DNA of 33,674 bases. It comes from a bacterium (lineage in GTDB: Bacteria > Electryoneota > Electryoneia > Electryoneales > Electryoneaceae). The position numbers and the translations under genes are program-made. This document shows, in pieces, positions 1 through 22,444 of the stretch; within the stretch, counting starts at the first letter, position 1, and each line of letters starts with the position of its first letter. The notes below the pieces were generated by a model. That model did not search any database. It was not told the DNA's origin and was given only the letters and a program-made list of their open reading frames with translations. The DNA lies in NCBI GenBank assembly GCA_028278125.1, contig JANQEY010000086.1, positions 1 through 33,674 of the forward strand. Direction: 5' to 3'.

Positions 1-2037
1 AATGATATAATCAACCTGTTACTGGAGCTGGCGCCAGCGCAACCAGCTCCCGCACCGGAAGCGGTAAATGTCCAAACTGAACCTGCCGCCCAAGCACAAA
101 TCGTTCAGACAGCAGTCGCAGATGAAAAAACCATTACTGACGGCCTTTTAAGCCTGGTCAGCGAAAAAACCGGTTATCCAACCGAAATGCTTGGACTCGA
201 CCAGGACATGGAAGCAGACCTGGGAATTGATTCCATTAAAAAGGTTGAAATCCTGGGAAGTTTACAGACTGCAATTGGAAGTATGCCAGGTGAACAGGTA
301 CAGGAAAGAATGGAAGAGTTTACCCGTTCAAAAACGATCCGGGAAATAATAAATCTCCTGGTAGAATTATCCGGTTCACCATCAGGTACACCTGTAACAA
401 CTGATGTACAACAGGAAACTACAATCGCTGCACCGGTTCAGGAACAAGTCTTAACAGAAACACCACGATTTGTTGTTGTCCCGGAAAAACAGCCAATTCC
501 TGATGGTTTTGAGCAAACGGATTTACCGGGAGGTTTATACCTGATAACTCCCGACGCGATGTCCGTGGCACCTGTCGTCGCAGAATTGCTGAAGGAAAAA
601 GGCGCTACTGTCGAATTTATCGAGCCGGACGTGTTATTTGACTACAATCTGCTCTCTTCTAGAATAGAAGCTCTACGTGATAAACATGGTTCCGTCAAGG
701 GAGTTATTCATCTTTCTACACTTGGTATCAGCCGCACACCCACAACACTTGAAGAATGGCAGCGTCATTCAGGACTTCATGCCAAGGGATTATTCCGGAT
801 TCTGCAGATCTGTGCTGACGATTTAAAAAGTGCCGGCGAATCCAAAGAGGGCAGAGTTTTATCCGCAACCATGTTTGGAGGGTACCTGAAACCTAACGGC
901 CATAGCGGTGAACTTGCTCCCATCCCGACAGCAGGAGGTATTTCTGGTCTGTTAAAAACAATGACGATGGAATGGGATGGTGTTTACGCTAAAGCCATCG
1001 ATTTCGACACCAGCCTTTCGGCTGCAGATATAGCTAAAAACATTATTAATGAGGTCCAATGGGCTGGAGGTCGAGTTGAAGTCGGATATCCGAAGGGACA
1101 TAGAACAATCTTCCAGACAGTCCCGGCAATGCTGGATTCAAACGGAATGGATGGAACTTTAGTACCATCTTCAGACTGGGTAGTGCTGGTAACGGGTGGT
1201 GCAAGCGGGATAACATCGGAAACTGCACAAGTTTTCGCGAATAGTGGAGCTACGTTAATCCTTGTGGGACGTAGTGCCGAACCTGGAGAAGAAGACGCGG
1301 AAACTGCCGCAGTCAACGATCCAGGGCAATTACGAACTCTACTCCTTTCCAGGGCAAAATCGAAGGGTAATGTTCCCAAGCCCACCGAACTGGAACATGA
1401 AATCAGAACAATTTTACATAATCGTGAAATTCGCAATAACATAAATCGTCTTCGTGATGCCGGTGCCAGGGTTGAATATTATTCAACAGATGTTCGCAGT
1501 GAGAGTAAATTCGGTCAATTAATTGATGATATCTACGATCGTCATGGAAAGATCGACGCTGTTTTACACGGAGCAGGTGTAATCGAAGACAAACTGATAA
1601 TTAACAAAACAGTCGATTCATTTGACCGGGTATATGATACAAAGGTGGATAGCAGCTTCATCCTCAGCAGAAACCTTCGACCTGAATCCTTGAAACTGTT
1701 GATATTCTTCAGTTCGGTTGCAGGGCGGTATGGAAGCAGGGGACAAGCCGACTACGCTGCCGCAAACGAAGTTCTAAACCGTATGGCCTGGCAACTTGAT
1801 CACCGATGGGACAACACCAGGGTTGTAGCAATCAGCTGGGGCCCATGGGATAATACAGCATCGGGAATGGTGACAGAAGAAATGAAACAACATTTCCTCA
1901 ATGAGGGAATAATTCCAATTCCGCCATCATCAGGACGGGAATTCCTGAAACAGGAGTTTGAATTTGGCAGTAAAGGTGAAGCGGAAACGATCGCCGGGCA
2001 GGGACCCTGGGGAACATCCTCGGAAAAAGACCAATAG
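1..2037 (+). CDS. Iterative PUFA-type polyketide synthase, C-terminal part (ACP-ACP-KR), 5' truncated
   Basis: The frame is open from base 1, so the methionine at 187 is internal and 678 residues of a longer protein are visible. Residues 1-10 (NDIINLLLEL) match the end of the next ACP (REIINLLVEL), so at least two ACPs stand in tandem. The complete ACP spans about residues 46-122; its phosphopantetheine serine is Ser78 in LGIDSIKKVE, the signature of PUFA synthase (PfaA) ACPs. After a linker comes a ketoreductase: a structural half at about 150-380, then a catalytic half with NADPH motif TGGASGI (398-404), Ser572, Tyr585 and Asn589. A roughly 60-residue insertion after the second strand (about 425-485) is usual in PfaA/HglE-like KRs. 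By family knowledge the missing N-terminus should hold a KS and an AT. The stop lies 10 bases before the next synthase gene, so the two are surely co-transcribed. KR assignment is firm; the product is unknown. Confidence 0.93.
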   Translation, partial: NDIINLLLELAPAQPAPAPEAVNVQTEPAAQAQIVQTAVADEKTITDGLLSLVSEKTGYPTEMLGLDQDMEADLGIDSIKKVEILGSLQTAIGSMPGEQVQERMEEFTRSKTIREIINLLVELSGSPSGTPVTTDVQQETTIAAPVQEQVLTETPRFVVVPEKQPIPDGFEQTDLPGGLYLITPDAMSVAPVVAELLKEKGATVEFIEPDVLFDYNLLSSRIEALRDKHGSVKGVIHLSTLGISRTPTTLEEWQRHSGLHAKGLFRILQICADDLKSAGESKEGRVLSATMFGGYLKPNGHSGELAPIPTAGGISGLLKTMTMEWDGVYAKAIDFDTSLSAADIAKNIINEVQWAGGRVEVGYPKGHRTIFQTVPAMLDSNGMDGTLVPSSDWVVLVTGGASGITSETAQVFANSGATLILVGRSAEPGEEDAETAAVNDPGQLRTLLLSRAKSKGNVPKPTELEHEIRTILHNREIRNNINRLRDAGARVEYYSTDVRSESKFGQLIDDIYDRHGKIDAVLHGAGVIEDKLIINKTVDSFDRVYDTKVDSSFILSRNLRPESLKLLIFFSSVAGRYGSRGQADYAAANEVLNRMAWQLDHRWDNTRVVAISWGPWDNTASGMVTEEMKQHFLNEGIIPIPPSSGREFLKQEFEFGSKGEAETIAGQGPWGTSSEKDQ

Positions 2038-2047
2038 AGAAAAAATA

Positions 2048-5000
2048 ATGAGCAATAAAAAAGCGCCCAGTATTAATAAACTGGACCGACGTCAATATCA
2101 GAGCACAAATTCTCCAAAGGATATCGCCATTATCGGCATGTCCGGGGTATTTGCAGTTTCACAAGATATCAACGAATACTGGCAGAATATCCTGAATAAG
2201 GTATCGGGGATCAGCGAAGCTCCAGACTCATGGTCAGAACCGTATTTTGATCCTGAATCCACTGAAAATGATCGAATTGGTACCCGTATGGGTGGATTTA
2301 TGGGTGACAATGCGCGGTTCAATTCTATGGAATTCGGTATCATGCCAAATGCCGTTGGTGGTGGTGAGCCCGACCATTTTATTGCTTTAAAACTTGCCCG
2401 CGACGCTCTAAAAGATGCCGGCTACTGGGACAAAGAATTCGACCGTCATAAGACAGGAGTCATTTTCGGTCACGGGACTTACCTGAACCGTAGTTTCGGA
2501 ACACTGTTCCAGCATGGAATGGTCATCGACCAGACCCTGGAAATGCTTAAACAGTTTAATCCTGAGCTTGATGACATTGACCTGGATAAAATCAGGACTA
2601 AATTAAAATCAGGTCTACCATCATTTAATCCGGATGTAGTCCCAAGTCTTGTTCCGAATGTCCTGACCGGCCGAATCGCCAACCGCCTCGACTTAATGGG
2701 TCCCAATTACCTTGTGGAGGCTGCGTGTTCATCCTCCCTTATTGCCCTGGAGCTTGGTGTAAAGGAATTATTGAACGGACGATGCGACATGGTATTGGTT
2801 GGTGGCGCTAATTCAGCGTCATCACCCCAGCTTTACATGATGTTTCACCAGATTGGTGCACTAACACCAACGATTATCAAACCTTTCGATAAAAATGCCA
2901 ACGGCACACTCCCCGGTGAAGGTCTCGGGATTGTTGTCTTAAAACGCCTGGAAGACGCTGAGAGGGACAATGATCGAATCTATGCCGTTATCAAGGGCGT
3001 CAGTTCTTCAAGTGACGGAAAAGCGAAGGGATTACTTGCACCGCGTTTTGACGGCCAGGTACTCGCTCTCGAACGCACTTACGGTGAATCGGGTATCGAT
3101 CCCGATACCGTTGAATTAATTGAGGCGCATGGTACCGGGATGCCACTGGGTGACCAGACAGAGGTAGAAACCCTGACTCATATTTACGGTGGTCGTGATG
3201 ATCACATCCCTTACAGGGCACTGGGTTCTGTAAAATCGATGATAGGGCATCTCTTCACCGCTGCCGGTATTGCAGGACTGATTAAAACAACCCTTGCTCT
3301 ATATCATAAAGTTCTCCCACCCACACTTTGTGACGAAGTCGATCCGGAGCTGGGTTTTGAGAATACCGCGTTTTATATAAACACTGAAACCCGTCCCTGG
3401 ATCCATGGAACAGACCTTCATCCAAGGCGAGCTGGAGTTAACGCGTTTGGATTCGGGGGCACAAATGCCCATACCATTCTCGAGGAGTATACCGGGACAA
3501 ATTCCGATGAAATTCAGTTTTTCAATAACGATTGGCCATCGGAAATATTCCTCTTTACCGGCAATGATTCGAAAGAACTGTTGGATAAGGTTTCAAAGGT
3601 CAGGGAATTACTAAAGGCTGAACCTGAGATCCGAATATCGAACTTGTCGTTTACCCTGGCGGAAGACACTAAAGATCCTGGTGATTTCAGGCTGGCAATA
3701 GTAGCTAAGAGTGCGTCAGATCTTGCTGAGAAGATAGACAGCATCACAGACCGTTTCGATGATAAGAAATTTTTGGGATTACAGGGTTTACGCGGGATCT
3801 TCTACGGAGAAAAACCAAAAGAGGGAAAAACCTCATTCATCTTTGCCGGGCAGGGTTCTCAATATACAAACATGTTTGCCCAATTGTGCCTCTATTTCCC
3901 GAAGGTACGCGCATGGTTTGATCTGCTTGACGAACTTTATACGGATCGAAAGAATCGGCCCTGTAGCCTGCTCTATCCTCCACCAACCTGTGTCACAAAA
4001 GAAGAAAAATCGCTGATTGCCGAGGAGCTTTTCAGCATGGAGTTTACCAACGACGTTGCCTTCTGCGCTGAACTCGCGGTAAATGAACTTCTCGATGACT
4101 TTGGTATCAACAGCGATGCGATGGTTGGTCACAGTACCGGTGAAAATTCAGCGTTGATCGCATCGGGAATAGGCGCTATCAGTGAGCGTGAACGGTTTAT
4201 GGATTCAATCAGGGCGTTTAACCGTTCATACAAACAGATACAGGGATCAGATGTTATCCAGGACGGTATCCTGTTAACTGTTGCCTCGGTAAAACTTGAG
4301 CTCCTGGAGAAGTTGGTCCAAGATTCAAAGGGTAAGCTTCATATCGCCCTCGATAATTGCCCAAACCAGATAGTCCTCTATGGAAAATCGGCAGATATTG
4401 AAGCGATAATCCCGGCACTTGAAAAAGAGGGTGGTTTTACTGACAAGATGCCTTTTGACAAGGCCTATCACACTTCAGTTTTTAAGGATGCGGCAAACCA
4501 TTTCCGCAGCTGTTATGAAAACATGCAGATTGAAGAGGCGGTTACTCCCCTGTACAGCTGCGCAACTGCCGATGTATTTCCAAGCGACAAGAAAAAAATC
4601 GTTAATCTCGCTATAGAGATGTGGCATACACGTGTACGGTTCCGTGAAACTATCGAGAAGATGTATGAAGATGGAATCCGCACATTTATCGAGGTGGGCC
4701 CAAGTGGAAATCTGACGGCTTTTGTTGATGACATTCTCCACGGATCTGAATATCGTGCCATGGCGTCTAATAACCGTCGACGTTCTGACCTCGAGCAGAT
4801 ACAATGCCTCCTGGGTCAATTATTTACCGATGGACATTCCCTGGAGTTTTCACCGCTGTTCGCCCAACGAAGCCTTGAAAATATATCTATCGTTCCAGGT
4901 GAATCTGATGATAACGGTAAGAAAAACCTGGGATCGATACTTGACTTGACGATTCCGAAGCTGGAGCTTGAAAACAGTTTTGTAGATACATTCGCAGATA

Positions 5001-8000
5001 AAAGAATAAAACCGGTTGAACCGGCGAAAGAGAAAACTGCTCCCGTTAAACCACACGAACCTGTTCAACACCAACAGCCCGTCACGACACCGGCTGCGCC
5101 AATACCGACTCCACCTGTCCAACCGGCAGTTCAGGAAACTCCACAGCCTGTCACAGCTTCAGCATATGCATCAGCAGACGATCCTAAGTCGCAGGCTATT
5201 GCGACACATTTCCAGTTGATGAACGAGTTTCTTGCAAGCCAGAACAGGGTAATGACAAAGTTTACCGGTGAGGAATCCCCTGGTATTCCAGCAGTTCAGC
5301 AGCATTTTACTTCTCCACAACCTGCGGCGGTTGCGGCCACAACAGTGCAGGCTCAAACAGCGCCTCCCATTGAGGAACAATTGAGCTTTGAAGAAGCCTG
5401 GCCGATGCTGGGAAGAATTGTGGAACAGACTGCGGACAAACTGTATTGTATAAATATATTTGACGTAGAAAAAGATCTGTTTTTGAAAGATCATACCCTG
5501 GCTGGGATTATTTCCGAACGACACCCGGAAACTCATGCTCTTGCTGTTATGCCTTTTGTGGGAAGCGCCGAAGTACTAGCTGAGGCCGCAGCCTGTATCT
5601 TTAACGGGACTAAAAAAGTTGTAAGCGTTTATGATCTTCGCGGATACCGCTGGTTATCGTTTGATCACGGTAAGCTGGAAATAGGCATCCTGGCTAACAG
5701 GTTACCAGACCAGGATGATCGATCAATAAATGTCCAGGTTGAATTATATATTATTGATAGAAACAACGGAGATGAAAAGCAGGTTAAAGCCTATGAGGGT
5801 AAAGTAAAGCTGGCTGACGCGTATCCTGCACCACCTCCCATGCTTGACATCGATGAAGAGAAAATGCTGCCATCCAACGTCAGGGATGACCAGCTTTATA
5901 ATAACGGTGTACCGGATAATCCACGTTTCTCGGGTTCAACTCACGGCCCCAGTTTCCAGGGATTGAAGCATTTAGAGTCCTTTAGTGACGATGGCATCAT
6001 TGGCGAACTTGAGGTTGTTTCCCTTAAGAACTTCTTCAAAAATGCTCCAAATGCAAGATTCCAGACCGATCCAACCTCAATCGACTCAGCCGGGCAAATG
6101 GCATCGCACTGGCTGGCAGAACTGTACGGTGTTGACTGGAACCTGCTTCCATACCTGATTGGTGGTATCCATATGTACGGTGAATTACCACCTCCGGGCA
6201 CCAAGCTCATAGCAAAGAGCGAACTTTTCTTCGGAAGCGCTATTCCCGGCATGGAACTGAAAGATGCCAGGTTCGAGTTCCTCGATTATGAGGGAAACAT
6301 CATATCGAGCTCGAAAGTTAACGATTATAAAAACTTCCAGTTGCCGGATGATTATTATGTCTGTCGACTTCAGCCTGAAATGGCAGTGCTTGAGGGCAGC
6401 GTAGATTTTATTGAAGCAGCTACCGGGCGACTGGTTGCCAGGATGGATGGATGGCAGGAACGGTTCTTCCCGGGTGTTCCCCACAATGTATATCAATGGA
6501 GCATCTATCCACTTCACTGGTCACTTTCAAGTAAGTGGATGCAGAAAGAGACCGGTTTGGTTTGCCGCAGAATTAAACCGATCATGAAAACCTTCTGGAC
6601 AGACTCCTGGGGAATCTGGGCCCGTAAATTCGCACATACAATTTTAAATGAAAATGAACGCAAGGAATATTATTCATTTAAGGCTGACTATATCAAAAAC
6701 GAAAACTTCCTCCTTGGCAGGTTAGCCGCCAAGGATGCAATCAGGCAGTGGTTAAATGATGAGCATAATGAAACACTTGCACCCCTTGACATTGAAATAA
6801 AACATAACGGTGACGGTAAACCTTTTGCATCATGCCCATCATTGAGTCATATCCAACTGCCGGAAATTTCGATCAGCCACAGCAACGAATACAGCATTGC
6901 TGCTGCGGCTCCAATTGGTAAAAAGATAGGAATTGATTTCGAAAGAATTCGTGATGATTTGTCTGTCGATGATCTCCTGACTGCAGGTTTCACCCAGGAT
7001 GAAAAAGACATCATTGAGGCTGTTGATGCCGACAAGAGGGAAAGAACTATAATCGGTATCTGGTGCGCCAAGGAAGCCGCGGCTAAAGCACTGGGCACCG
7101 GTTTAAAATATGATCCTACAAAATGGACAGTAACTTCTCTTCCATCGGAAGATGGAAATCTGGTAATCGTTCATGAAGGTGAGGAGTACCACTGCACAAC
7201 CTGGAATGCTAAAAACGCTGTACTGGCAGTATGCCTGATCGATTTGCAGAACACAGGTGAAAAAGAATTAATTGCTGTTGAAGAAAAAGACGTTTCAACT
7301 CCATCTGAGTCTGTAAGTCATGGAACTGAAGAATCAACGAATTCTGTCCAGGAACAAACCACTGAAGATATAACCGGTGCTGATCCTGAACCTGTAGAAA
7401 CTGCTGAAGAGATCAAAACGGAAGTTCACGAAGGTATACAACCTGAAGAGGAACAAAGCGAAGAGGACCTGGAGAAAAGAAGAGAGCTCGAAGAAAAACT
7501 AAAAACAATGTGGCAAGAGGTACTGAAGGTTGAAACCGTAGGCCTTGATGATGACTTTTTTGATCTAGGCGGTCAGTCAATGCTGGCAGTACGATTAATG
7601 GGGAAAGTCCGTGAACTTACCCAGGAAAACATCCCGATTGCCCAGCTAATCAAGGTTCGTACAATCCGTGAAATGGTTGACCTGTTAACCCAGGAGGGCG
7701 GGATAAAGCAGGAATCAATGCTTTCATCTCTTGTTCCGTTCCAGGAAAAAGGTAGTAAACGTCCTCTCTTTTTCGCACATTCTTTGGGCGGAAATGTTCT
7801 CAATTACAGGCTTCTCTCGGAGTATCTTGGTGAAGAGCAACCTTTTTACGGTTTACAGGCTAAGGGAGTTTATGGTGATGAAGAGCCACTGACCACAGTA
7901 AGTGACATGGCTGCTCATTATATCAAGGAAATTCGTACTATACAGGAGAAGGGGCCATATTTTATCGGTGGTTTCTCCGGAGGCGGAATAACAGCGTTCG

Positions 8001-8521
8001 AAATGGCAAACCAGTTAATTGCAGCAGGTGAAGAAGTTCCTCTTGTGGTCATGTTTGATTCTTATGAGCCAAGTTATATGCGATATTTAAAGACTCGCTG
8101 GATTCTTCCACCTCAAGTAATCTCCATGCTTTGGGTTTTAAGCTTGCACTGGTATAATATGAGATCAAAGAGTTTCCGCGAGATGATTGATTATATTGCA
8201 TATCGGTTGAAAAATGGTGATTGGCGATCTCGTAATGAATTACCTCCTCAATTGAAACATGTCCAGAGGATTACACGGGACGCTGTTATGGCCTATGAAC
8301 CAGAACCTGTTGATGTCCGTGTTACCCTGTTCAGGGCGATTGAGCAACAAAAATCGATCAGAAGAGATCTTGGTTGGGAAAAGGTTGCTAAAGAGGGTGT
8401 TGAAGTTGTTGATATTCCAGGTGCACACGGACACATGGTGGAAGAACCTCATGTAAAGGTATCCCAGGCTAGACTCATAGAAATTGTTGAAAATGCGGAA
8501 AAGCATATACGGGATCTTTAA
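2048..8521 (+). CDS. Multidomain polyketide synthase KS-AT-DH-PPTase-carrier-TE
   Basis: The protein has 2157 residues when started at ATG 2048, ten bases after the previous stop; an in-frame ATG at 1958 would overlap the upstream gene and add 30 basic residues with no domain match. Domains in order: ketosynthase (about 30-470; Cys227, His361, His401 all present), acyltransferase (about 600-920; Ser696 in GHSTGE), a Pro/Gln-rich linker with a conserved-looking helix, dehydratase double hot-dog (about 1120-1440; His1149 in KDHTLAG, Asp1346 in DSAGQ), 4'-phosphopantetheinyl transferase (about 1540-1740; Asp1630/Glu1632 in GIDFE and WCAKE at 1672-1676), acidic linker, an NRPS-like carrier (Ser1844 in DLGGQS) and a thioesterase (Ser1977 in GFSGGG, probable His2127). 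All catalytic residues I could check are intact. A DH joined to a PPTase recalls enediyne PKSs; the KS-AT resembles PUFA or heterocyst-glycolipid synthases. It probably shares substrates with the upstream ACPs. Start codon choice is likely but not proven. Confidence 0.93.
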   Translation: MSNKKAPSINKLDRRQYQSTNSPKDIAIIGMSGVFAVSQDINEYWQNILNKVSGISEAPDSWSEPYFDPESTENDRIGTRMGGFMGDNARFNSMEFGIMPNAVGGGEPDHFIALKLARDALKDAGYWDKEFDRHKTGVIFGHGTYLNRSFGTLFQHGMVIDQTLEMLKQFNPELDDIDLDKIRTKLKSGLPSFNPDVVPSLVPNVLTGRIANRLDLMGPNYLVEAACSSSLIALELGVKELLNGRCDMVLVGGANSASSPQLYMMFHQIGALTPTIIKPFDKNANGTLPGEGLGIVVLKRLEDAERDNDRIYAVIKGVSSSSDGKAKGLLAPRFDGQVLALERTYGESGIDPDTVELIEAHGTGMPLGDQTEVETLTHIYGGRDDHIPYRALGSVKSMIGHLFTAAGIAGLIKTTLALYHKVLPPTLCDEVDPELGFENTAFYINTETRPWIHGTDLHPRRAGVNAFGFGGTNAHTILEEYTGTNSDEIQFFNNDWPSEIFLFTGNDSKELLDKVSKVRELLKAEPEIRISNLSFTLAEDTKDPGDFRLAIVAKSASDLAEKIDSITDRFDDKKFLGLQGLRGIFYGEKPKEGKTSFIFAGQGSQYTNMFAQLCLYFPKVRAWFDLLDELYTDRKNRPCSLLYPPPTCVTKEEKSLIAEELFSMEFTNDVAFCAELAVNELLDDFGINSDAMVGHSTGENSALIASGIGAISERERFMDSIRAFNRSYKQIQGSDVIQDGILLTVASVKLELLEKLVQDSKGKLHIALDNCPNQIVLYGKSADIEAIIPALEKEGGFTDKMPFDKAYHTSVFKDAANHFRSCYENMQIEEAVTPLYSCATADVFPSDKKKIVNLAIEMWHTRVRFRETIEKMYEDGIRTFIEVGPSGNLTAFVDDILHGSEYRAMASNNRRRSDLEQIQCLLGQLFTDGHSLEFSPLFAQRSLENISIVPGESDDNGKKNLGSILDLTIPKLELENSFVDTFADKRIKPVEPAKEKTAPVKPHEPVQHQQPVTTPAAPIPTPPVQPAVQETPQPVTASAYASADDPKSQAIATHFQLMNEFLASQNRVMTKFTGEESPGIPAVQQHFTSPQPAAVAATTVQAQTAPPIEEQLSFEEAWPMLGRIVEQTADKLYCINIFDVEKDLFLKDHTLAGIISERHPETHALAVMPFVGSAEVLAEAAACIFNGTKKVVSVYDLRGYRWLSFDHGKLEIGILANRLPDQDDRSINVQVELYIIDRNNGDEKQVKAYEGKVKLADAYPAPPPMLDIDEEKMLPSNVRDDQLYNNGVPDNPRFSGSTHGPSFQGLKHLESFSDDGIIGELEVVSLKNFFKNAPNARFQTDPTSIDSAGQMASHWLAELYGVDWNLLPYLIGGIHMYGELPPPGTKLIAKSELFFGSAIPGMELKDARFEFLDYEGNIISSSKVNDYKNFQLPDDYYVCRLQPEMAVLEGSVDFIEAATGRLVARMDGWQERFFPGVPHNVYQWSIYPLHWSLSSKWMQKETGLVCRRIKPIMKTFWTDSWGIWARKFAHTILNENERKEYYSFKADYIKNENFLLGRLAAKDAIRQWLNDEHNETLAPLDIEIKHNGDGKPFASCPSLSHIQLPEISISHSNEYSIAAAAPIGKKIGIDFERIRDDLSVDDLLTAGFTQDEKDIIEAVDADKRERTIIGIWCAKEAAAKALGTGLKYDPTKWTVTSLPSEDGNLVIVHEGEEYHCTTWNAKNAVLAVCLIDLQNTGEKELIAVEEKDVSTPSESVSHGTEESTNSVQEQTTEDITGADPEPVETAEEIKTEVHEGIQPEEEQSEEDLEKRRELEEKLKTMWQEVLKVETVGLDDDFFDLGGQSMLAVRLMGKVRELTQENIPIAQLIKVRTIREMVDLLTQEGGIKQESMLSSLVPFQEKGSKRPLFFAHSLGGNVLNYRLLSEYLGEEQPFYGLQAKGVYGDEEPLTTVSDMAAHYIKEIRTIQEKGPYFIGGFSGGGITAFEMANQLIAAGEEVPLVVMFDSYEPSYMRYLKTRWILPPQVISMLWVLSLHWYNMRSKSFREMIDYIAYRLKNGDWRSRNELPPQLKHVQRITRDAVMAYEPEPVDVRVTLFRAIEQQKSIRRDLGWEKVAKEGVEVVDIPGAHGHMVEEPHVKVSQARLIEIVENAEKHIRDL

Positions 8522-8603
8522 TAACCGGCAGGAACAATATTTATCCCTGCATTGTTAGACAGTCTATATTCAGGAACATAATAGAATATGTTGAAAATGT
8601 AAT

Positions 8604-8647
8604 TTGCGTCACTCCAAATACGCTAAAATAGCGTTATAATGACGCAA
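8604..8647. repeat. Nested two-tier palindrome between PKS and sulfotransferase genes
   Basis: TTGCGTCA (8604-8611) pairs perfectly with TGACGCAA (8640-8647). Inside it ACGCT (8620-8624) pairs with AGCGT (8630-8634) around an AAAAT loop. No T-run follows, so it is not a standard intrinsic terminator. It sits in the only long gap (169 bases) of the biosynthetic block and could be an operator, an RNA processing or stabilising hairpin, or a REP-like remnant. Confidence 0.6.
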
Positions 8648-8690
8648 TTTATTTAGCTAAACTATAAAAAACGATCAGGTAAATAAACTA

Positions 8691-9629
8691 ATGAAAGAGC
8701 AACAGCTTGATTTTGTTGGCGTTGGCATGGCCAAAGCTGGAACCACATGGGTTTTCTCTGCCCTGAACGAACATGATCAAGTCTATTTGCCTGATTATAA
8801 AGAGCTAAACTATTTCACCGACACCCATCTGCTTCAGACCATCAAAAATATTGGTGGCCATTATGTCATATCTCACCGTCACCAGGGACCGGAATGGTTT
8901 AATGAGCATTTTAAAGACGCGAAACCCGGTCAGGTACTAGGTGAAATAAGTCCTGCATATTTCCATGATCCGAATTCACCCGGATATATTCTTGAGAACA
9001 ACCCCAAGATGAAGATTATATTGAATTTCCGTAACCCGGTAGATACAATATATTCTTCATATTTCCAGCTTAATAAAATGCTCCCGGTGCGCGGTACATT
9101 TGAAGACATGCTCGAACGATACCCGGCTGTTTATGAATACTTCAAATGTTACAAAAATGCCTCTCGTTACATGGATGCTTTCCCCCGTGAACAGGTTCAT
9201 TACATTTTTATCGAAGACATAAAGAACAAATCTTTAGAAACTTTTTACGATCTCCTTGAATTCCTGGAGCTTGAAAAAATAGAAGAGCCCGACGTTCTGA
9301 AAAAACGCGTAAATCCACGGTTAGTGGTACAATCCAGATTTTTACGTGATATTATACTTAATACCCACGGATTCATAAATAACCATCAGTCAACCCGGAT
9401 TTTTAAGCCATTGATGCGAGCTATCGGTCTCGACAGGTTATCGATAAAAATTCGTAAGAGTAACCTGAAACGTGTCGAAAAGACTGAGCCAATGAAACTT
9501 GAAACACGCCAGAGTCTGATCGATACGATGAGAGATGATATCAACCGGCTTATGGACATGGTTGATCGCGACTTGAGCCACTGGTTAAAAATGCCCGACG
9601 AGAAAGCTAAAGAAGCCAGCAATAATTAG
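8691..9629 (+). CDS. Sulfotransferase family protein (PAPS-dependent)
   Basis: A 312-residue cytosolic protein of normal family length. The PAPS 5'-phosphosulfate loop is GMAKAGTTW (12-20, Lys15), close to the family pattern PKxGTT. The 3'-phosphate site is visible as RNPVDTIYSSY (114-124) with Arg114 and Ser122/123. GEISPAYF (84-91) fits the region that often carries the catalytic acid or base. The family moves a sulfuryl group from PAPS to hydroxyl or amino groups of sugars, lipids or other acceptors. It follows the synthase genes on the same strand and precedes two sugar-nucleotide enzymes by 52 bases, so the acceptor is plausibly the polyketide lipid or a sugar attached to it. An alternative role, sulfating a beta-hydroxyacyl chain before TE-driven decarboxylation as known for CurM-type ST-TE pairs, cannot be excluded. 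Family is sure; substrate is inference. Confidence 0.9.
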   Translation: MKEQQLDFVGVGMAKAGTTWVFSALNEHDQVYLPDYKELNYFTDTHLLQTIKNIGGHYVISHRHQGPEWFNEHFKDAKPGQVLGEISPAYFHDPNSPGYILENNPKMKIILNFRNPVDTIYSSYFQLNKMLPVRGTFEDMLERYPAVYEYFKCYKNASRYMDAFPREQVHYIFIEDIKNKSLETFYDLLEFLELEKIEEPDVLKKRVNPRLVVQSRFLRDIILNTHGFINNHQSTRIFKPLMRAIGLDRLSIKIRKSNLKRVEKTEPMKLETRQSLIDTMRDDINRLMDMVDRDLSHWLKMPDEKAKEASNN

Positions 9630-9681: not shown

Positions 9682-10614
9682 ATGGAAAAGATTCTGGTTA
9701 CCGGAGGTGCGGGATATATTGGATCGATTCTCGTACCAACACTTCTTCAACTGGGACACAAGGTTACCATCTACGACAGTTTTATGTTCGGAGCGACTCC
9801 TCTGTTAAGCTTCTCGCGTCATCACAACCTGGAAGTAATTAAAGGAGACATCAGGGACAAGGAAAACATGGCAAGAGCCATTAAGGGACACGACTGGGTA
9901 TTTCACCTGGCAGCAATCGTCGGTTATCCCGCTTGTGCCGCGGACCCAACACGTGCCAATTCAACCAATGTTGAAGGTACTCAAATCGTTCTCGATGCAA
10001 TGGAAAAAGGCCAGAAGCTGATGTATGCTTCAACCGGCTCCACATATGGTAAAGTTGAAGGTACAGCTACTGAAGAAACCCCGATTGCCCCATTAACGCT
10101 ATATGGTAAAAACAAACGCGACTGCGAACACATGATCCAGCAGACCGATCTTGACCATTGTATGTTCCGTTTTGCCACGGTTTTCGGAAGCTCACCCAGG
10201 ATGCGTCTTGATCTCCTGATAAATGATTTTGTTTACCAGGCAATTCATAATAAACAGATTGTTCTTTTTGAAGGCCATTTCCGTCGTACGTTCCTGCACA
10301 GTACCGATGCCGCGGCGATATATACTTTTGCGCTGGAAAATTTTGATGCGATGAATGGTGGTGTGTTCAATGTTGGCGACGAAAAAATGAACTACACCAA
10401 AAAGGACGCTGCTGAAGCAATCGCCAAGCACATAGACTATTACCTGCATGAAGCTGAGTTTGGAAGTGATCCGGACAAGCGTGATTATGAAGTTGATTAT
10501 TCCAAGCTTAATAATCTCGGGTTCAAGGCAAAAGTCGACCTTGATATGGGTGTCCAGGAATTGATTAAAATTCTCTCGGTATTAAAAGTTGATAATCCAT
10601 TAAGAAATGCTTAA
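9682..10614 (+). CDS. NAD-dependent epimerase/dehydratase (nucleotide-sugar, extended SDR)
   Basis: A 310-residue extended short-chain dehydrogenase. The N-terminal Rossmann motif is TGGAGYIG (7-14), and the catalytic pair is Tyr141/Lys145 in YGKNK, with Ser/Thr at 117-121 (STGST). HLAAIVGYPACAADP (75-89) is typical of sugar-nucleotide epimerases or dehydratases in polysaccharide and glycolipid loci. A good ribosome site (ACGGAG, nine or ten bases upstream) supports ATG 9682. It lies 52 bases after the sulfotransferase and 23 bases before a second enzyme of the same superfamily, so the two probably act in sequence on one NDP-sugar. Whether it is a 4-epimerase, a dehydratase or a reductase cannot be told from the motifs. 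Confidence 0.9.
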   Translation: MEKILVTGGAGYIGSILVPTLLQLGHKVTIYDSFMFGATPLLSFSRHHNLEVIKGDIRDKENMARAIKGHDWVFHLAAIVGYPACAADPTRANSTNVEGTQIVLDAMEKGQKLMYASTGSTYGKVEGTATEETPIAPLTLYGKNKRDCEHMIQQTDLDHCMFRFATVFGSSPRMRLDLLINDFVYQAIHNKQIVLFEGHFRRTFLHSTDAAAIYTFALENFDAMNGGVFNVGDEKMNYTKKDAAEAIAKHIDYYLHEAEFGSDPDKRDYEVDYSKLNNLGFKAKVDLDMGVQELIKILSVLKVDNPLRNA

Positions 10615-10637: not shown

Positions 10638-11579
10638 ATGGCAACCGTTGTTTTACTAACCGGCGGAACCGGATTTTTCGGTCGACGCCTGAAAGAAGCT
10701 ATTGAAAGCCAGGATAAATATGAGCTGGTAGCTCCCGGCAGGCCAGATTTTGACCTGATGGACCCTGAATCTGTCCAGAAAACATTAAAAGATATAATGC
10801 CGGAGATTGTCGTTCATTCAGCTGCTTATTACGGTGGTCTGAAGATCTGTATGGAAGAACCGGCAAATATGTTCCATCACAACATCGTGATGATGGCAAA
10901 CCTGTTTGAGGCCTGCGGTAAAGCCGGAATTAAACGATTTGTCAGCATCGGCTCGGCTTGCGGATATGCCGGTGATGTAGCCGGTGATATGAGCGAAGAC
11001 GATTTCTGGAGTGGTCCTCTTCACCCGTCTGTTGAAGCTTATGGTTTTACAAAAAAAGCCCAGCAGGTCGGTGCCCGTGCTTTCGGAAAGGAACACGGCT
11101 GGATAACTCAATTCCCCCAGATTACAAACCAGTACGGTGAGAACGACGTTTTCACGGAATACCGCTCGCATGTTGTTGCGGCAATGATTAAACGTTACGC
11201 TGACGCCAGGCTGAATAACGTTGAAGAAGTTGTCAACTGGGGTACAGGCGCGCCTGTGCGTGAATTCATATACACTCGTGATTCGGCAGAAGCAGTTGTA
11301 CGGTTAATGGACACAGAGTACCAGGACACTATCAATATCGGTACCGGTACCGGAACATCCATCAAAGAACTGGCCGAACTTATAGCAAAACATGTCGGGT
11401 ATGAAGGTATTGTTTCCTGGGATACAACCAAGGCTGACGGAGTGATGCGGAAGGTACTTGACGTATCACGTATGAAAGAAGTTCTGAACTGGGAACCCCC
11501 TACATCTCTTGATGAAGGGCTGGGTAAAACCATCTCCTGGTATATGGCGAATAAAGAAGAGGCCGACGCGAGGCCATAA
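10638..11579 (+). CDS. NAD(P)-dependent epimerase, GDP-L-fucose synthase-like
   Basis: A 313-residue extended SDR. The cofactor motif is TGGTGFFG (8-15), and the catalytic residues are Ser106, Tyr135 and Lys139 (YGFTK). The sequence around GSAC (105-108) places a cysteine where GDP-fucose synthase has its acid/base Cys, and LHPSVEAYGFTK resembles the PxxPxxxAYxxxK region of that family; AAYYGG at 62-67 also fits. It would make or rearrange a GDP- or other NDP-6-deoxysugar. It is the last gene of the + strand block. Its stop codon (11577-11579) is one base from the stop of the convergent phosphatase gene, and no terminator separates them. The superfamily is certain; the GDP-fucose synthase label is a likely analogy only. 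Confidence 0.87.
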   Translation: MATVVLLTGGTGFFGRRLKEAIESQDKYELVAPGRPDFDLMDPESVQKTLKDIMPEIVVHSAAYYGGLKICMEEPANMFHHNIVMMANLFEACGKAGIKRFVSIGSACGYAGDVAGDMSEDDFWSGPLHPSVEAYGFTKKAQQVGARAFGKEHGWITQFPQITNQYGENDVFTEYRSHVVAAMIKRYADARLNNVEEVVNWGTGAPVREFIYTRDSAEAVVRLMDTEYQDTINIGTGTGTSIKELAELIAKHVGYEGIVSWDTTKADGVMRKVLDVSRMKEVLNWEPPTSLDEGLGKTISWYMANKEEADARP

Positions 11580-11580
11580 T

Positions 11581-14500
11581 TTAATGCGAGTTTGTCAGGC
11601 GTTTTAACGCCATTTGTGTGAAATCGTCGTGTTCGAATCCATTTTCCGGGCAATCGGTCTGGGTCCATTCGGACACGACGGTTTCTACTTTTATCAGGAA
11701 GTTTTTAGCATCAAGACCGGCGAGGGATCTCACCAATGGTTCCAGCCGTTTTTCGTCAAACTCAGTACCAGCAGGCGTAAAAGCTTCATTTACGCCATCA
11801 GTGTAGAGATAAAGAATATCCTCCGCCATCATCTTCACCGATTGCGATTCGTACCTGGTATCGTCGAACATTCCAAAGCAGATCCCGCCTTTGTCAAGTT
11901 TCTCCATATCACCGGTGATCCGAACCAGCATCGGTGCGTTATGTCCTGCGTTCACTGTTTCCAGGACACCTTCCCTGATATTAAGGAGACCGATAAATCC
12001 GGAGGCAAATTGTTCAGGAAGTGTATTGCTGAAGAGAATTTTATTCGCCCTTGCTGCTATTTCCACAAGTGGTAATTCAGTGTTAAACAGGGAATGGAAG
12101 GTAGCCTGGAGATTGGATACCAGCAGAGCCGCTGATAGTCCCTTCCCGGAAACATCACACATCACCATTCCAATTCGTCCATTGCCACAGGGAATTATGT
12201 CGAAATAATCTCCACCGATCTCTTTACAGGGATAGTTATATCCATATACCTCAAAACCATCAATCCTTGGTAGATCTTCCGGTTTAGGTACTATCAGTCT
12301 TTGAATACTCGCAGCTGTTTCAAGCTCGGCTTCCATTTCAGCCTTTGTCAGTTCTTCAGCCTGTTTTCTTTTCAGTTTCCTGATGTGTCCCCTGTAGACC
12401 GGCATGATTATCAAGAGAATTATCGGCAGCCCCATCGCTGCATAACCAATATTCTGCCAGGGGAATGGTGGGTGGTAATATTCGATCTTCCAGACAAACA
12501 GCCTGCCAGATGCTATACCATAGAAGTTTCCCTTCCTGATCTTCGGATTTTCTATACCTGCAAAAGGAAGCGGTTCCCTGCTGAGAATTGATCCATTCCT
12601 GACATCCAGGATCATCAGAACACCTGAATTAAGCAACGCCGCCAATGTATTAGGATCATCATTATTCACCCATTCAAAGTTCCTGCTCAGTTCCTGCTTC
12701 CATAACAGTCTATCGGAATCATTGGCTGTTGATGCCAGGTCAACACCAACAAGGTCAAGATGATCATTCAATACCATCACATCAGACCTGTTGGTCTGGT
12801 TCCAGTGCCAGGCTGTTTTACTCCCGGGAACAATAAATTTTTTATGCCGCCTGTTGTCCGGATCGTAGAGCATAATTGTATCACCGCGAACATAGACAAG
12901 GTCACCGGAAGAGTTTGAAGTTCTCGGAACATAGCCCTTTGGCAGTGGATGTTCAGAAATTCTCTTTCCTGTTTTCGGCTCAATTTCCCACATATTGTTT
13001 GTATCATTAACCAGGATTCCGATACGACCGTTTTCGATATTTGTACTCAGGGTATCCTCATTCCGGATGTAAGTCATTTCGAGGGGCACATTTGGAGGGT
13101 ATAAACGTTTGATATCACCCAGGTTTAACCCATCCGCGATATTATAATCGCCCCAGCCTATGATAATATCACCTTCCTGGATTCCCTCATCATAGGCGCG
13201 TGATGGCTGCGAAATTCCGGAAACAAGCTGTCCCCATTTATTGTGAGCATAAACCCTGTCACCAACGGTTATTGACTGCGTTAAAGTTGTATCAACCCAG
13301 TGATTCCCGTCTCCGGACAGATCCACTCCCACAGTTATCATACCTGTTGGAACTTTTTCGTCGAGTACCAGTCTTCTGAAACAGGTCACTATATAATTAT
13401 CAGCGCATTCCTCCATCTCCAGCCTGTCTTCGTATCCCCAGGTTACGATATTGGCGGAGGATAATTTCCCAAGTTCTGCTTTTCTTTTGAAAAGGTTACC
13501 CAGCTCGATAATATCCCCGTCTTCTGTATAAAGCACCGGTTCGATTTCCAGGAGATGTTCCGTACTGTCAAAATGGCTGTTAAAAAACAGGAGACATTTA
13601 TCGAGGTCGATTGAACAGTTCGGAATTATAGTATTATTAAGAACATGCGCTTTGTTATACGGGGCATCATAGATATAGCTATCATTATTCCGTCCAAGGA
13701 GGACATCGGGGATATACCCATATGATGATCTTGCCAGCAGAGTTTGGTCACCAACCCACAGATGGTAACTTTTACCCAGGTGTGCGTCTTCCGACAACGC
13801 GATAACATCGGTCATCAATAGTTTTTTGCGCCATCTATCGTCCGGAATTTCAATTGCGGATTTGCCGATCATCTGGAGTTTCTCTTTTTCAAACTCCATT
13901 TTATCGAATAGTGCGACAAGTTTTTCGATGGATCGGGGTGTTAAAGACTGGGTAGTTGCGATTGATCGTCTTGCATGCTGGACAGCATTCAGAGTATCTC
14001 CAAGCTCCCAGTAGCTCATTGATGCCAGGGCGTGAAACTCGCTCCGTAAGCTCATCCCTTTAAAAATTCGGTAGGTCCTGGCTTCGTTTCTAGTATATGT
14101 TACGTAGGATTTTACCTTTTCCCGGTAGTTTCCACGCAGATAATCAGGCGATTCAAGTTTTCCGATCTCATATTGTCCCTTTGCGTCAAAAACGTGGAAA
14201 CGATGCTGGTCGGCACTCAGTATCACAAAACCGTCAGTATAGACAAGATAGCGATCCCTTGCCGCATGAACATCCATCGCCTTTACAAGCTTGTAATCTC
14301 CTCTTTTATTCTTTTTAAATAGTTTCAACCAGTTGGGATATATGTGCACCCAGAGAACGTCGAGTGAATCATGTATAACCGCACGAACATCCTGGTCTTC
14401 AATAGAAAACAGGACGTTGCCTTCTTCTACAATCCTGAGTCCTTTTGGTCCCTGTTCAATAAAATTTCCATTCCACCAGGCACCCCATCCATCCAGCGTT

Positions 14501-15654
14501 TCCATTGACAGCACCTGGTCTACATGATCCTTTTCAAGCCTGAACATCCTGGTAGAATCCATTCCCACGCAGGAGAGGTATTGGAATCCCTCTTCATTAA
14601 TCCCGAACCACCGCTTGTAGTCCATGTTCAGGGCATTATCGAAAGTATATGACCTGCATTTTAAATCAGGTTTTTTCAGGTTAACTACATGTATAACATC
14701 GTCCTGCACCGATGTAAAATGTTTCTTCAGAAACCTTGATTTTTCATTCACCTGGAATGGGAGGGAATTGTATAACGTTAAGTCACCATTCTGCAGGTTA
14801 ATATTGTAGATTTTGCTTCCCTGGGCGAGAAGCCATTTATCCCCTGTTTTACCGAGATAGCGGAAATATCTTTCAATACCTCCAAACTTGTATGGAATAA
14901 CTCCCAGTGAAAAATCCAGCGACGAGACAGTAACCACAGTTCCGGATTCAATATCCGCCAGCCGCAGGTAAATTCCGGTTTGTTGTCTTTCCAGGAGCCA
15001 GGCTTTGGTTAAATCCCCATCCATAAATGGCCAGAGGCTGAATTCGTCAGCTCCTTCACGATGGTAGTATCTAACTGGTTGAACTTGAGTAGTATCAAAA
15101 ATTGCTACCCTTGCGCCAACATATTCCGGCTGTGATTCGACCGCAATGATATAATGGTTTTCCGGGTTTTCATCAACCTGGCCGATCCAGTCAATATTCC
15201 AGGGTGCCGGATCATAAACGCCAACAATATTATTATTTCCTGGATCAATGACTGTTAGCCGTTTCATTTTTTCGCTGATATTCGAAAATTCCACGACTCC
15301 GATCCAACTGCCCCAGAACAAGGCTCTGTCTACTGAACCTTCTTTGGAATAGTGCCAGTCAGATTCTATCAGGGAGTCAATATTATTCAGCCCCTTTTCG
15401 CTGAGTCGGACAACTTCGCTCCAATCTCTTGCATCAAGGGCATCCTGGCTTTTTTTATGGAGGTTTTCTAAATCAGGAGAGGCATGAGCAGAGAACAGGG
15501 AGGCCTGCAGTGCCAATATTATTAACACCATAAGGATACTAACGACAGATCTGTAAAAACGCATACCAAGCTGGATATCTAGTGGAGATATCCCTCCCTG
15601 ATTGTATCCCGCGGCTCCAGTTTCTAAAAGAGTTATACTACTGAACTTCAACAT
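11581..15654 (-). CDS. Membrane-anchored PPM/SpoIIE-type phosphatase with large extracytoplasmic propeller and PDZ-like sensor
   Basis: From ATG 15654 it has 1357 residues; starting at ATG 15564 (residue 31) puts a clean signal peptide or anchor (RFYRSVVSILMVLIILALQA) at the very N-terminus and gives 1327 residues. I favour the second, though neither has a strong ribosome site. A TPR-like helical pair follows, then many beta-propeller-like repeats, another helical TPR-like stretch at about 535-595, a PDZ-like domain at about 806-870 (AYDEGIQEGDIIIGW), further propeller, a transmembrane helix at about 1066-1086, a coiled coil (RKQAEELTKAEMEAE) and the cytoplasmic phosphatase with metal ligands in EIGGDYFD (about 1147) and DVSGKG (about 1168). 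RsbU/SpoIIE-type enzymes dephosphorylate anti-anti-sigma (STAS) proteins. No such partner or anti-sigma kinase lies in the window, so it probably acts on targets elsewhere. Confidence 0.92.
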   Translation of the reverse strand: MLKFSSITLLETGAAGYNQGGISPLDIQLGMRFYRSVVSILMVLIILALQASLFSAHASPDLENLHKKSQDALDARDWSEVVRLSEKGLNNIDSLIESDWHYSKEGSVDRALFWGSWIGVVEFSNISEKMKRLTVIDPGNNNIVGVYDPAPWNIDWIGQVDENPENHYIIAVESQPEYVGARVAIFDTTQVQPVRYYHREGADEFSLWPFMDGDLTKAWLLERQQTGIYLRLADIESGTVVTVSSLDFSLGVIPYKFGGIERYFRYLGKTGDKWLLAQGSKIYNINLQNGDLTLYNSLPFQVNEKSRFLKKHFTSVQDDVIHVVNLKKPDLKCRSYTFDNALNMDYKRWFGINEEGFQYLSCVGMDSTRMFRLEKDHVDQVLSMETLDGWGAWWNGNFIEQGPKGLRIVEEGNVLFSIEDQDVRAVIHDSLDVLWVHIYPNWLKLFKKNKRGDYKLVKAMDVHAARDRYLVYTDGFVILSADQHRFHVFDAKGQYEIGKLESPDYLRGNYREKVKSYVTYTRNEARTYRIFKGMSLRSEFHALASMSYWELGDTLNAVQHARRSIATTQSLTPRSIEKLVALFDKMEFEKEKLQMIGKSAIEIPDDRWRKKLLMTDVIALSEDAHLGKSYHLWVGDQTLLARSSYGYIPDVLLGRNNDSYIYDAPYNKAHVLNNTIIPNCSIDLDKCLLFFNSHFDSTEHLLEIEPVLYTEDGDIIELGNLFKRKAELGKLSSANIVTWGYEDRLEMEECADNYIVTCFRRLVLDEKVPTGMITVGVDLSGDGNHWVDTTLTQSITVGDRVYAHNKWGQLVSGISQPSRAYDEGIQEGDIIIGWGDYNIADGLNLGDIKRLYPPNVPLEMTYIRNEDTLSTNIENGRIGILVNDTNNMWEIEPKTGKRISEHPLPKGYVPRTSNSSGDLVYVRGDTIMLYDPDNRRHKKFIVPGSKTAWHWNQTNRSDVMVLNDHLDLVGVDLASTANDSDRLLWKQELSRNFEWVNNDDPNTLAALLNSGVLMILDVRNGSILSREPLPFAGIENPKIRKGNFYGIASGRLFVWKIEYYHPPFPWQNIGYAAMGLPIILLIIMPVYRGHIRKLKRKQAEELTKAEMEAELETAASIQRLIVPKPEDLPRIDGFEVYGYNYPCKEIGGDYFDIIPCGNGRIGMVMCDVSGKGLSAALLVSNLQATFHSLFNTELPLVEIAARANKILFSNTLPEQFASGFIGLLNIREGVLETVNAGHNAPMLVRITGDMEKLDKGGICFGMFDDTRYESQSVKMMAEDILYLYTDGVNEAFTPAGTEFDEKRLEPLVRSLAGLDAKNFLIKVETVVSEWTQTDCPENGFEHDDFTQMALKRLTNSH

Positions 15655-18419: not shown

Positions 18420-18458
18420 ATACTATAAATGGTCTATACCGGGAAACCGGAAAATATA

Positions 18459-18486
18459 AGCCGGACACTCAGGTGTCCGGCTTTTT
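18459..18486 (+). terminator. Strong intrinsic terminator after the T9SS protein gene
   Basis: AGCCGGACAC (18459-18468) pairs perfectly over ten bases with GTGTCCGGCT (18473-18482) around a TCAG loop, followed by TTTT. It starts 40 bases after the stop codon at 18419. Confidence 0.92.
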
Positions 18487-18567
18487 ATCTAACAATAATC
18501 CCGGGAAACTCTGTTATGCCTCGGCACACAAGTCCTGGGCTACCTCGCGTTTCAATAAGTATAAATT

Positions 18568-18602
18568 GGTGTCGTCCCCGGTTTGACCGGGGACCCAGTG
18601 TC
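18568..18602 (+). repeat. REP-like palindromic repeat, copy 1
   Basis: A 35-base unit beginning GGTGTCGTCCCCGG and ending CCAGTGTC. Its core GTCCCCGG (18574-18581) and CCGGGGAC (18587-18594) forms a perfect 8-bp stem with a TTTGA loop. The reverse complement occurs at 21126-21160 with 32 of 35 bases identical, on the other side of the gene at 18748-20952. Confidence 0.85.
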
Positions 18603-18747
18603 TTTATGTGATGTATTATGGATTTATTGGGTAGACAATTGGATATTGTTGCATAACCAAAATCTATTTTGTAAACTAATCCCATCCCCCGCACACTTAG
18701 TCCATTCTCTGTACTGAGATAATTTCGTAAATACCATTGAGAGCTCG

Positions 18748-22439: not shown

Positions 22440-22444
22440 TAGAA

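What the first reader, a model, noticed from the sequence alone, without database searches (positions are those of the whole stretch)
1..8521. Split iterative polyketide/secondary-lipid synthase with unusual domain layout
Seen: ACP-ACP-KR ends one gene and KS-AT-DH-PPTase-carrier-TE forms the next. Known: PUFA synthases use PfaA (KS-AT-ACPn-KR), PfaC (KS-CLF-DH-DH), PfaD and a separate PPTase; enediyne PKSs use KS-AT-ACP-KR-DH-PPTase in one chain; HglE-type synthases are related. Here the second gene has a full KS-AT pair, no chain-length factor, one DH, an internal PPTase and a TE end. Inference: this is a distinct architecture making a released long-chain hydroxy or unsaturated acid.
Basis: partly seen in the sequence, partly recalled or inferred. 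Interest (0 to 1): 0.75.

Follow-up and report, generated by a model that had tools for sequence, protein, structure and literature searches.

The report
Lipid-making enzyme pair with release domain
This looks like a two-gene bacterial factory for an unusual long-chain lipid, of a known but uncharacterised kind; what is uncommon is a product-release tail on the second enzyme that resembles the ends of peptide-making enzymes.

Summary
ORF1 (1-2037, cut by the window start) ends ACP-KR; ORF2 (2048-8521) is KS-AT-DH-PPTase-ACP-TE with intact catalytic motifs. The layout is less novel than claimed: KS-AT-DH-PPTase proteins partnered by KS-AT-ACPn-KR are widespread, their second KSs share a supported clade, and they include a Gloeobacter violaceus protein, probably of Shulse-Allen "Type O". 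Fused pfaDA plus pfaBC-PPTase genes are in print. Relatives suggest what is missing upstream: an NMO (PfaD-like reductase) region before KS-AT-ACPn. AT2 is PfaB-like. The uncommon part is the ACP-TE tail: the window and 3 others of 120 listed proteins carry PPTase+TE; the four group together and the tail is NRPS-like. Downstream, 13 of 14 comparable loci have a phosphodiesterase-family gene; the exception has two sulfotransferases, and this window has one plus two GDP-sugar-type genes. Best reading: a secondary lipid synthase whose chain is released by a captured NRPS-type TE, possibly then sulfated or glycosylated. Product unknown.

The parts
1..2037 (+). ORF1, 3' part of a PfaA-like protein: ACP remnant - ACP (about 142-297) - KR (Pfam match 1183-1851)
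   Evidence: (TIGR02813 PfaA 294.9 bits, below its cut-off of 1010.1); best related loci L004 (45%) and L003 (51%)
2048..8521 (+). ORF2: KS-AT-DH-PPTase-ACP-TE, 2157 aa
2117..3643 (+). KS with its C-terminal extension (second-gene KS clade)
   Evidence: KS tree (30-row clade 99, 46-row clade 98); C-H-H motifs
3836..4822 (+). AT2, PfaB/PfaBC-like, without the RG motif of malonyl-type ATs
5375..6397 (+). DH, double hot-dog (approximate limits)
6926..7234 (+). PPTase (extent of the ACPS match; the domain probably starts near 6485), ISISH and DGKP motifs
7493..7687 (+). C-terminal carrier (PCP-like, LGGQS)
7760..8443 (+). Thioesterase, NRPS-type (GFSGGG, GAHGHM)
8600..8651 (.). Inverted repeat (12-nt arms, 92% complementary) in the ORF2-ST gap; possible operator or internal promoter
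   Evidence: not shown to be functional, and the sigma-70 scan lists no promoter there
8691..9629 (+). Sulfotransferase (PAPS-type); profile nearest to PDB 3rnl, then heparan-sulfate sulfotransferases
9682..10614 (+). Nucleotide-sugar SDR, best PDB match 6vo6 (putative sugar-nucleotide epimerase/dehydratase)
10638..11579 (+). GDP-L-fucose-synthase-like SDR (best PDB match 7ll6; NF047922 227 bits, below its cut-off of 500)

Best explanation
ORF1 and ORF2 are the two proteins of an iterative secondary-lipid synthase of the fused pfaDA / pfaBC-PPTase kind (Type O-like). The missing 5' part of ORF1 should encode an NMO-type enoyl-reductase region, a KS, a malonyl AT and further ACPs. SHOWN by sequence: domain content, clade membership, PfaB-like AT2, NRPS-like ACP-TE tail. 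INFERRED: the PPTase domain activates the carriers; AT1 loads malonyl on the tandem ACPs; KS, KR, DH and ER build a long chain; AT2 or direct transfer moves the finished acyl chain to the C-terminal PCP-like carrier; the TE releases it as a free acid, ester or lactone; the sulfotransferase and the GDP-sugar-type enzymes may make a sulfated and/or glycosylated derivative.
For: Domains and motifs; 1785 proteins at E<=0.001, the window's own included; paired gene layout in relatives; KS tree, 40 of 40 second-gene rows inside a 46-row clade at 98; full-length tree of 31 rows, the four TE-bearing proteins one clade at 97/95 with tails cut off; ACP-TE tree of 45 rows, the same four at 100/96; NMO region on gene 1 in 15 of 18 loci with at least 2 kb before the first KS, four of the 15 having supplied the queries; Pfam NMO in 5 of 5 gene-1 proteins scanned, two stretches in 3 of them; AT2+PfaBC AT split from AT1 at 99, RG motif in 56 of 69 AT1 and 0 of 32 AT2; DH fold; ST with a carbohydrate-ST-like profile; five co-directional ORFs with gaps of 10, 169, 52 and 23 nt (and the ATG at 2048).
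Against: The upstream part is not in the window, so ER, KS1 and AT1 are inferred from relatives; three relatives with room for it (L065, L108, L111) show no NMO region. No genome is held and the organism is unknown. No product of a Type O-like synthase was found in the papers seen. The 169-nt gap with an inverted repeat before the ST may separate transcription units. No glycosyltransferase was seen in the block. In the KS-only FastTree the window grouped with P0045, which has no TE tail (99), not with the other TE-bearing proteins; differ from that. In the ACP-TE tree the window sits on a long branch, and the tool warns of long branches meeting. ORF2's AT has an Arg one column from where AT1 has it, so loss of the malonyl-binding Arg is not shown for the window itself. 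P0005, P0123 and P0124 have no Pfam DH match; their DH is assigned by alignment or by eye.
Confidence: 0.68

Rival explanations
1. Sulfation-primed olefin release as in curacin/OLS: the ST sulfates a beta-hydroxyacyl carrier and the TE hydrolyses and decarboxylates to a terminal alkene.
For: A PAPS-type ST lies next to an ACP-TE; Lentisphaerota locus L040 has two STs beside a related synthase.
Against: The ST profile hits heparan-sulfate sulfotransferases at up to 1.1e-24 but CurM ST only at 7.5e-5; the ST is a separate gene; the nearest solved relatives of the ACP-TE are NRPS. The TE was not compared directly with CurM TE.
Confidence: 0.08
2. Enediyne-PKS-like conjugated polyene synthase.
For: The same domain kinds, DH before PPTase (enediyne domain order recalled; CalE8 paper PMC3107222 seen only as a listing with the start of its abstract).
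Against: Two proteins; two KS-AT pairs and an NMO-type reductase on gene 1 in relatives; ORF1 and the KS-AT of ORF2 score best against the PfaA model, below its cut-off. No enediyne KS was in the tree, so this was not tested phylogenetically.
Confidence: 0.04
3. An ordinary Type O-like lipid synthase whose ACP-TE only edits or is accessory, with ST and sugar genes being an unrelated capsule or polysaccharide operon next door.
For: 169-nt gap with an inverted repeat; no glycosyltransferase in the block; the sugar genes resemble capsule-type and fucose enzymes; of loci L001-L111 searched with the ST, only L040 and its duplicate L110 have hits.
Against: TE tail shared by four divergent proteins; the ST sits where 13 of 14 complete relatives have a phosphodiesterase-family gene, and the one exception also has STs.
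Confidence: 0.2

Closest known systems
Type O secondary lipid synthase (Shulse and Allen 2011, PMC3098273): Gloeobacter violaceus, Dinoroseobacter shibae, Parvularcula bermudensis
   Same: The G. violaceus KS-AT-DH-PPTase protein P0062 is 40-41% identical, over 79% of ORF2; Rhodovulum relatives lie in the same 30-row KS clade; the ORF2 PPTase has ISISH, fitting the P1b' motif hShxH that the paper reports for types M-P and R-T, and DGKP, fitting its P1a x(G/D)xP.
   Different: No ACP-TE on P0062. Type letters come from the paper's text and tables (parts 1-4 of 7 read); Figure 1 was not visible, so P0062 as the Type O gene is inferred from the genome named. Product uncharacterised in that paper.
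Fused pfaDA and pfaBC-PPTase genes (Aquimarina sp. TRL1, Flavobacterium sp. N502540, likened to Renibacterium salmoninarum; PMC13291983, passage read)
   Same: PfaD fused to PfaA, and PfaB/C fused with a PPTase domain, which is the logic seen in the relatives here.
   Different: Those two are parts of PKS-NRPS hybrid clusters; their exact domain order (CLF or not) is in figures not seen; no PCP-TE tail is mentioned in the passages read.
Canonical PUFA synthase PfaABCDE
   Same: ORF1 end and ORF2 KS-AT score against PfaA (TIGR02813), below its cut-off.
   Different: No CLF and one DH in the visible part; PPTase fused; AT2 on the same protein as KS2; C-terminal PCP-TE.
Calditrichaeota MAG protein P0005 and unnamed P0123, P0124
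   Same: KS-AT-(DH)-PPTase-ACP-TE; group with the window.
   Different: P0005 40% identical overall; no Pfam DH match; long Pro-rich linkers; neighbourhood not seen.
swf cluster of sponge symbionts (PMC3908369, passages read)
   Same: Type I PKS/FAS with a sulfotransferase; the authors suggest an alkyl sulfate.
   Different: KS-AT-DH-ER-KR-ACP single protein; ST joined to a reductase in SwfB; no PPTase or TE in the stated domain order.

Membership tests
Fused pfaDA / pfaBC-PPTase secondary lipid synthase (Type O-like) | Second protein KS-AT-DH-PPTase in one chain | tested here: met
Fused pfaDA / pfaBC-PPTase secondary lipid synthase (Type O-like) | Second KS inside the second-KS clade | tested here: met
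   (FastTree): 30-row clade 99 and 46-row clade 98
Fused pfaDA / pfaBC-PPTase secondary lipid synthase (Type O-like) | Partner gene with tandem ACPs and PfaA-like KR directly upstream | tested here: inconclusive
   KR, one full ACP and a remnant seen; KS1, AT1 and further ACPs lie off the window
Fused pfaDA / pfaBC-PPTase secondary lipid synthase (Type O-like) | NMO-type ER at the N-terminus of gene 1 | not testable with these tools
   off the window; found in 15 of 18 relatives with at least 2 kb before the first KS
Fused pfaDA / pfaBC-PPTase secondary lipid synthase (Type O-like) | AT2 of PfaBC type | tested here: met
PfaABCDE PUFA synthase | PfaC with KS-CLF and two DH domains; separate PPTase | tested here: not met
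   no CLF, one DH, fused PPTase in the visible genes
PfaABCDE PUFA synthase | TIGR02813 (PfaA) above its curated cut-off | tested here: not met
   294.9 and 606.9 bits against 1010.1, the first on a truncated protein
Enediyne PKS (PksE) | KS-AT-ACP-KR-DH-PPTase in one chain (recalled) | tested here: not met
   two proteins, different order
Enediyne PKS (PksE) | KS in the enediyne clade | not tested
   no enediyne reference was fetched
HglE heterocyst glycolipid synthase | First KS in the HglE clade | not testable with these tools
   the first KS is off the window; the second KS is not in the clade that holds the first KS of the heterocystous-cyanobacterial loci (their hgl label is recalled)
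CurM/OLS olefin module | ST of the CurM kind fused with ACP and TE | tested here: not met
   separate gene; CurM ST only at 7.5e-5

The most novel reading that the evidence does not exclude
A lineage of secondary lipid synthases that captured an NRPS PCP-TE terminal unit, so that the PfaB-like AT2 hands the finished chain from tandem ACPs to a dedicated release carrier, and in which the conserved downstream phosphodiesterase-family gene has been replaced by a sulfotransferase (with GDP-sugar enzymes), giving a released, sulfated and possibly glycosylated long-chain lipid.
Probability: 0.3. Interest if true: 0.58.

Novelty: new variant of a known kind. Interest (0 to 1): 0.42.

Why it matters
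Secondary lipid synthases of this kind are widespread, and in what I read types M-O have no known product. A member with its own TE should release its chain without an unknown acceptor, which makes it a good candidate for reading out the chain chemistry of the whole group. The PfaB-like AT2 beside a PCP-TE is also a testable model of how PUFA-type chains are off-loaded. The conserved phosphodiesterase-family gene, and its apparent exchange for sulfotransferases, is a lead to the head group.

Tried and rejected
Viral contigs: none. Whole genome of the window: not held. TE-bearing relatives with context: the phyla of G002 (149 genomes), G003 (148) and G001 (194) gave hits in 4, 1 and 6 genomes at strict cut-offs, none reported to match beyond query residue 1107, so no TE tail was seen; the phylum of G498 (from a Bacteroidota locus) gave 0 of 395 at E<=1e-180, which the tool itself calls uninformative. 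Mutase gene as taxon marker: best 69% to a Saprospiraceae genome, 68% to two others, 67% to a proteobacterial MAG, so the host phylum stays open. In one search several ORFs chosen were on the wrong strand or frame, so its blanks say nothing about the phosphodiesterase. Considered and rejected: chimeric assembly (a like domain order in P0005, P0123 and P0124); methylmalonyl-CoA mutase as part of the pathway (opposite strand, about 10 kb away, other genes between).

Rows dropped: ACP-TE tree used the best 45 of 109 usable rows. Phosphodiesterase count: 13 of 14 is for loci with KS, AT, DH and PPTase all detected in gene 2 and at least 3 kb downstream; adding the incomplete ones L065, L105, L107 and L109 makes it 14 of 18 (of these four only L105 has it). 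L005, L078 and L111 hold under 0.6 kb downstream. Extra second-gene copies at G008:C109 (L089) and G006:C47 (L090) were not examined for neighbours. In the AT motif count 1 of 33 AT2 and 7 of 8 PfaBC rows lacked the anchor motif.
Full report
What is there. Translation of 1-2037 gives a protein open at the window start with one full ACP (LGIDSI), a KR, and at its first residues a stretch resembling the end of a preceding ACP. ORF2 (open frame 1958-8521; likely ATG 2048, 10 nt after ORF1's stop) carries KS, AT, DH, PPTase, PP-binding and TE by Pfam, each above its gathering score, with catalytic motifs for each. The DH was the weakest call; a profile of ten family DHs finds PksJ, MAS and Cur DH chains in PDB, and the AF2 model (pLDDT 76.9) matches PKS DH domains best.

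Relatives. A search with ORF2 returned 1785 proteins at E<=0.001 (its own included), 120 of them listed. Most listed are about 1,550-1,700 aa proteins with KS, AT and PPTase domains, and DH in most, at 36-52% identity; names given by sources include cyanobacteria, Gloeobacter violaceus, Nevskia, Sinimarinibacterium, Halioglobus and Terriglobia. In genome loci the layout KS-AT-ACPn-KR followed by KS-AT-DH-PPTase recurs in Fischerella (where the KR lies on an ORF of its own), Nevskiaceae, Rhodovulum, Rubrivivax, Brocadia, an acidobacterium and a Tectomicrobia MAG. A KS tree of 147 rows puts the window KS in a 30-row clade (99) inside a 46-row clade (98) that holds 40 of 40 rows labelled second-gene KS, apart from first-gene KSs and from PfaC KS and CLF (FastTree, with the tool's warnings about long branches and letter make-up elsewhere in the tree). 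So the layout belongs to a known broad kind. Shulse and Allen (PMC3098273; parts 1-4 of 7 read) list G. violaceus under Type O, product uncharacterised, and report the P1b' motif for PPTases of types M-P and R-T, which ORF2 also fits. The 2026 paper PMC13291983 (abstract, section list and passages) describes fused pfaDA and pfaBC with a PPTase domain.

What should lie upstream. Gene 1 of relatives begins with about 690 residues before the KS. Pfam finds NMO (PF03060; that PfaD is of this kind is recalled) in 5 of 5 gene-1 proteins scanned, in two stretches in 3 of them. By tblastn the region is present in 15 of 18 loci with at least 2 kb before the first KS (L002, 3, 5, 6, 8, 27, 33, 55, 59, 62, 72, 75, 105, 106, 110; not L065, L108, L111; four of the 15 supplied the queries), and also in Type M/N-like loci and the Azotobacter locus L022. 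The missing enoyl reductase is therefore expected at the N-terminus of ORF1; it is not shown for the window.

The two ATs differ. AT2 (33 rows) and PfaBC AT (8 rows) fall on one side of a branch from AT1 (69 rows), support 99 (quick tree). The RG motif that carries the malonyl-binding Arg (role recalled) follows the active serine in 56 of 69 AT1 and 0 of 32 AT2. ORF2's AT has an Arg one column away, so this is a family trend, not proof for the window. A transfer or off-loading role like that of PfaB is inferred.

The ACP-TE tail. A search with the PPTase-ACP-TE region listed 120 of 1243 hits; 4 of 120 have both PPTase and TE domains: the window itself, P0005 (Calditrichaeota MAG), P0123 and P0124; most others are NRPS modules. 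The best PDB matches of the tail are NRPS (4zxh first). The four tails form a clade at 100/96 among 45 rows, and the four KS-to-PPTase parts do so at 97/95 among 31 rows, which fits one capture event followed by descent. The KS-only tree did not show this grouping and put the window with P0045 instead. Proteins shorter than 0.55 of the query and unlisted hits were not seen, so rarity is a statement about these listings.

Neighbours. Three genes follow in the same direction with gaps of 169, 52 and 23 nt: a sulfotransferase and two nucleotide-sugar SDRs. The sulfotransferase profile is nearest to 3rnl (5.4e-44) and then to heparan-sulfate sulfotransferases (1.1e-24), and only weakly to CurM ST (7.5e-5), so carbohydrate-type or general O-sulfation is likelier than curacin-type release. 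The SDRs are nearest to 6vo6 and to GDP-fucose synthase 7ll6; 6vo6 is recalled to be Cj1427, the GDP-heptose C4-dehydrogenase described in PMC10680097 (passages), whose text does not give that code. In 13 of 14 related loci with KS, AT, DH and PPTase all detected in gene 2 and at least 3 kb held downstream, a phosphodiesterase-family gene follows within 0.5 kb (tblastn; Pfam PF01663 confirmed in four of them). L105, whose gene 2 is KS-AT-PPTase with a DH on gene 1, has one within 2 kb (Pfam). The exception, Lentisphaerota L040, has two sulfotransferases of 32% and 35% identity to the window's, and its gene 2 is split or frameshifted. Exchange of phosphodiesterase for sulfotransferase is thus a pattern from two cases only, and the Type M/N-like loci have hits to neither.

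Mechanism and limits. Shown: domains, motifs, clades, PfaB-like AT2, nearest kin of the tail. Inferred: iteration, ER upstream, transfer to the PCP, TE release, sulfation or glycosylation. Literature searches (listings and abstract starts) did not turn up the KS-AT-DH-PPTase-ACP-TE order or a Type O product; only open-licence papers are held, and MIBiG could not be searched.

Verdict. A new variant of a known, uncharacterised kind of secondary lipid synthase; the TE tail and the sulfotransferase neighbour are the parts worth following.

Noticed in passing
window 8600-8651: Inverted repeat with a TATAAT-like stretch in the gap between ORF2 and the sulfotransferase; may be an operator or promoter for the tailoring genes, though the sigma-70 scan lists none there.
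   Followed up: partly
L001, L002, L003, L006, L008, L027, L033, L055, L059, L062, L072, L075, L105, L106: A phosphodiesterase-family (PF01663) gene follows the second synthase gene; in seven loci (L001, L002, L008, L033, L059, L062, L072) it is 61-65% identical to the Fischerella copy. Its role in the lipid pathway is unexplained.
   Followed up: partly
L040 3311-8190 and L109 2870-7305: In two genomes reached through the Lentisphaerota centre the second gene reads as a separate KS and an AT-DH(-PPTase) protein; a split gene or a frameshift.
   Followed up: no
L105 6015-10091 (-): Second gene without a detected DH (KS-AT-PPTase, 1358 aa) while its gene 1 carries a C-terminal DH.
   Followed up: no
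window 21318-26747: MeaB plus two methylmalonyl-CoA mutase subunits on the minus strand.
   Followed up: partly
window 16260-20952: Two proteins with a secretion-system sorting tail (Por_Secre_tail), one with sortilin repeats, pointing to a Bacteroidota-like or FCB-group host (taxon link recalled).
   Followed up: no
window 11581-15654: 1357-aa protein with a C-terminal SpoIIE phosphatase and about 1,150 residues without a Pfam match at E<=0.001.
   Followed up: no
window 26857-29154: Protein with a glucuronyl-esterase-like half and a second alpha/beta-hydrolase half.
   Followed up: no
P0005, P0123, P0124: TE-bearing relatives carry long Pro-rich stretches between AT and DH, and no Arg in the AT2 columns where malonyl-type ATs have RG.
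   Followed up: no
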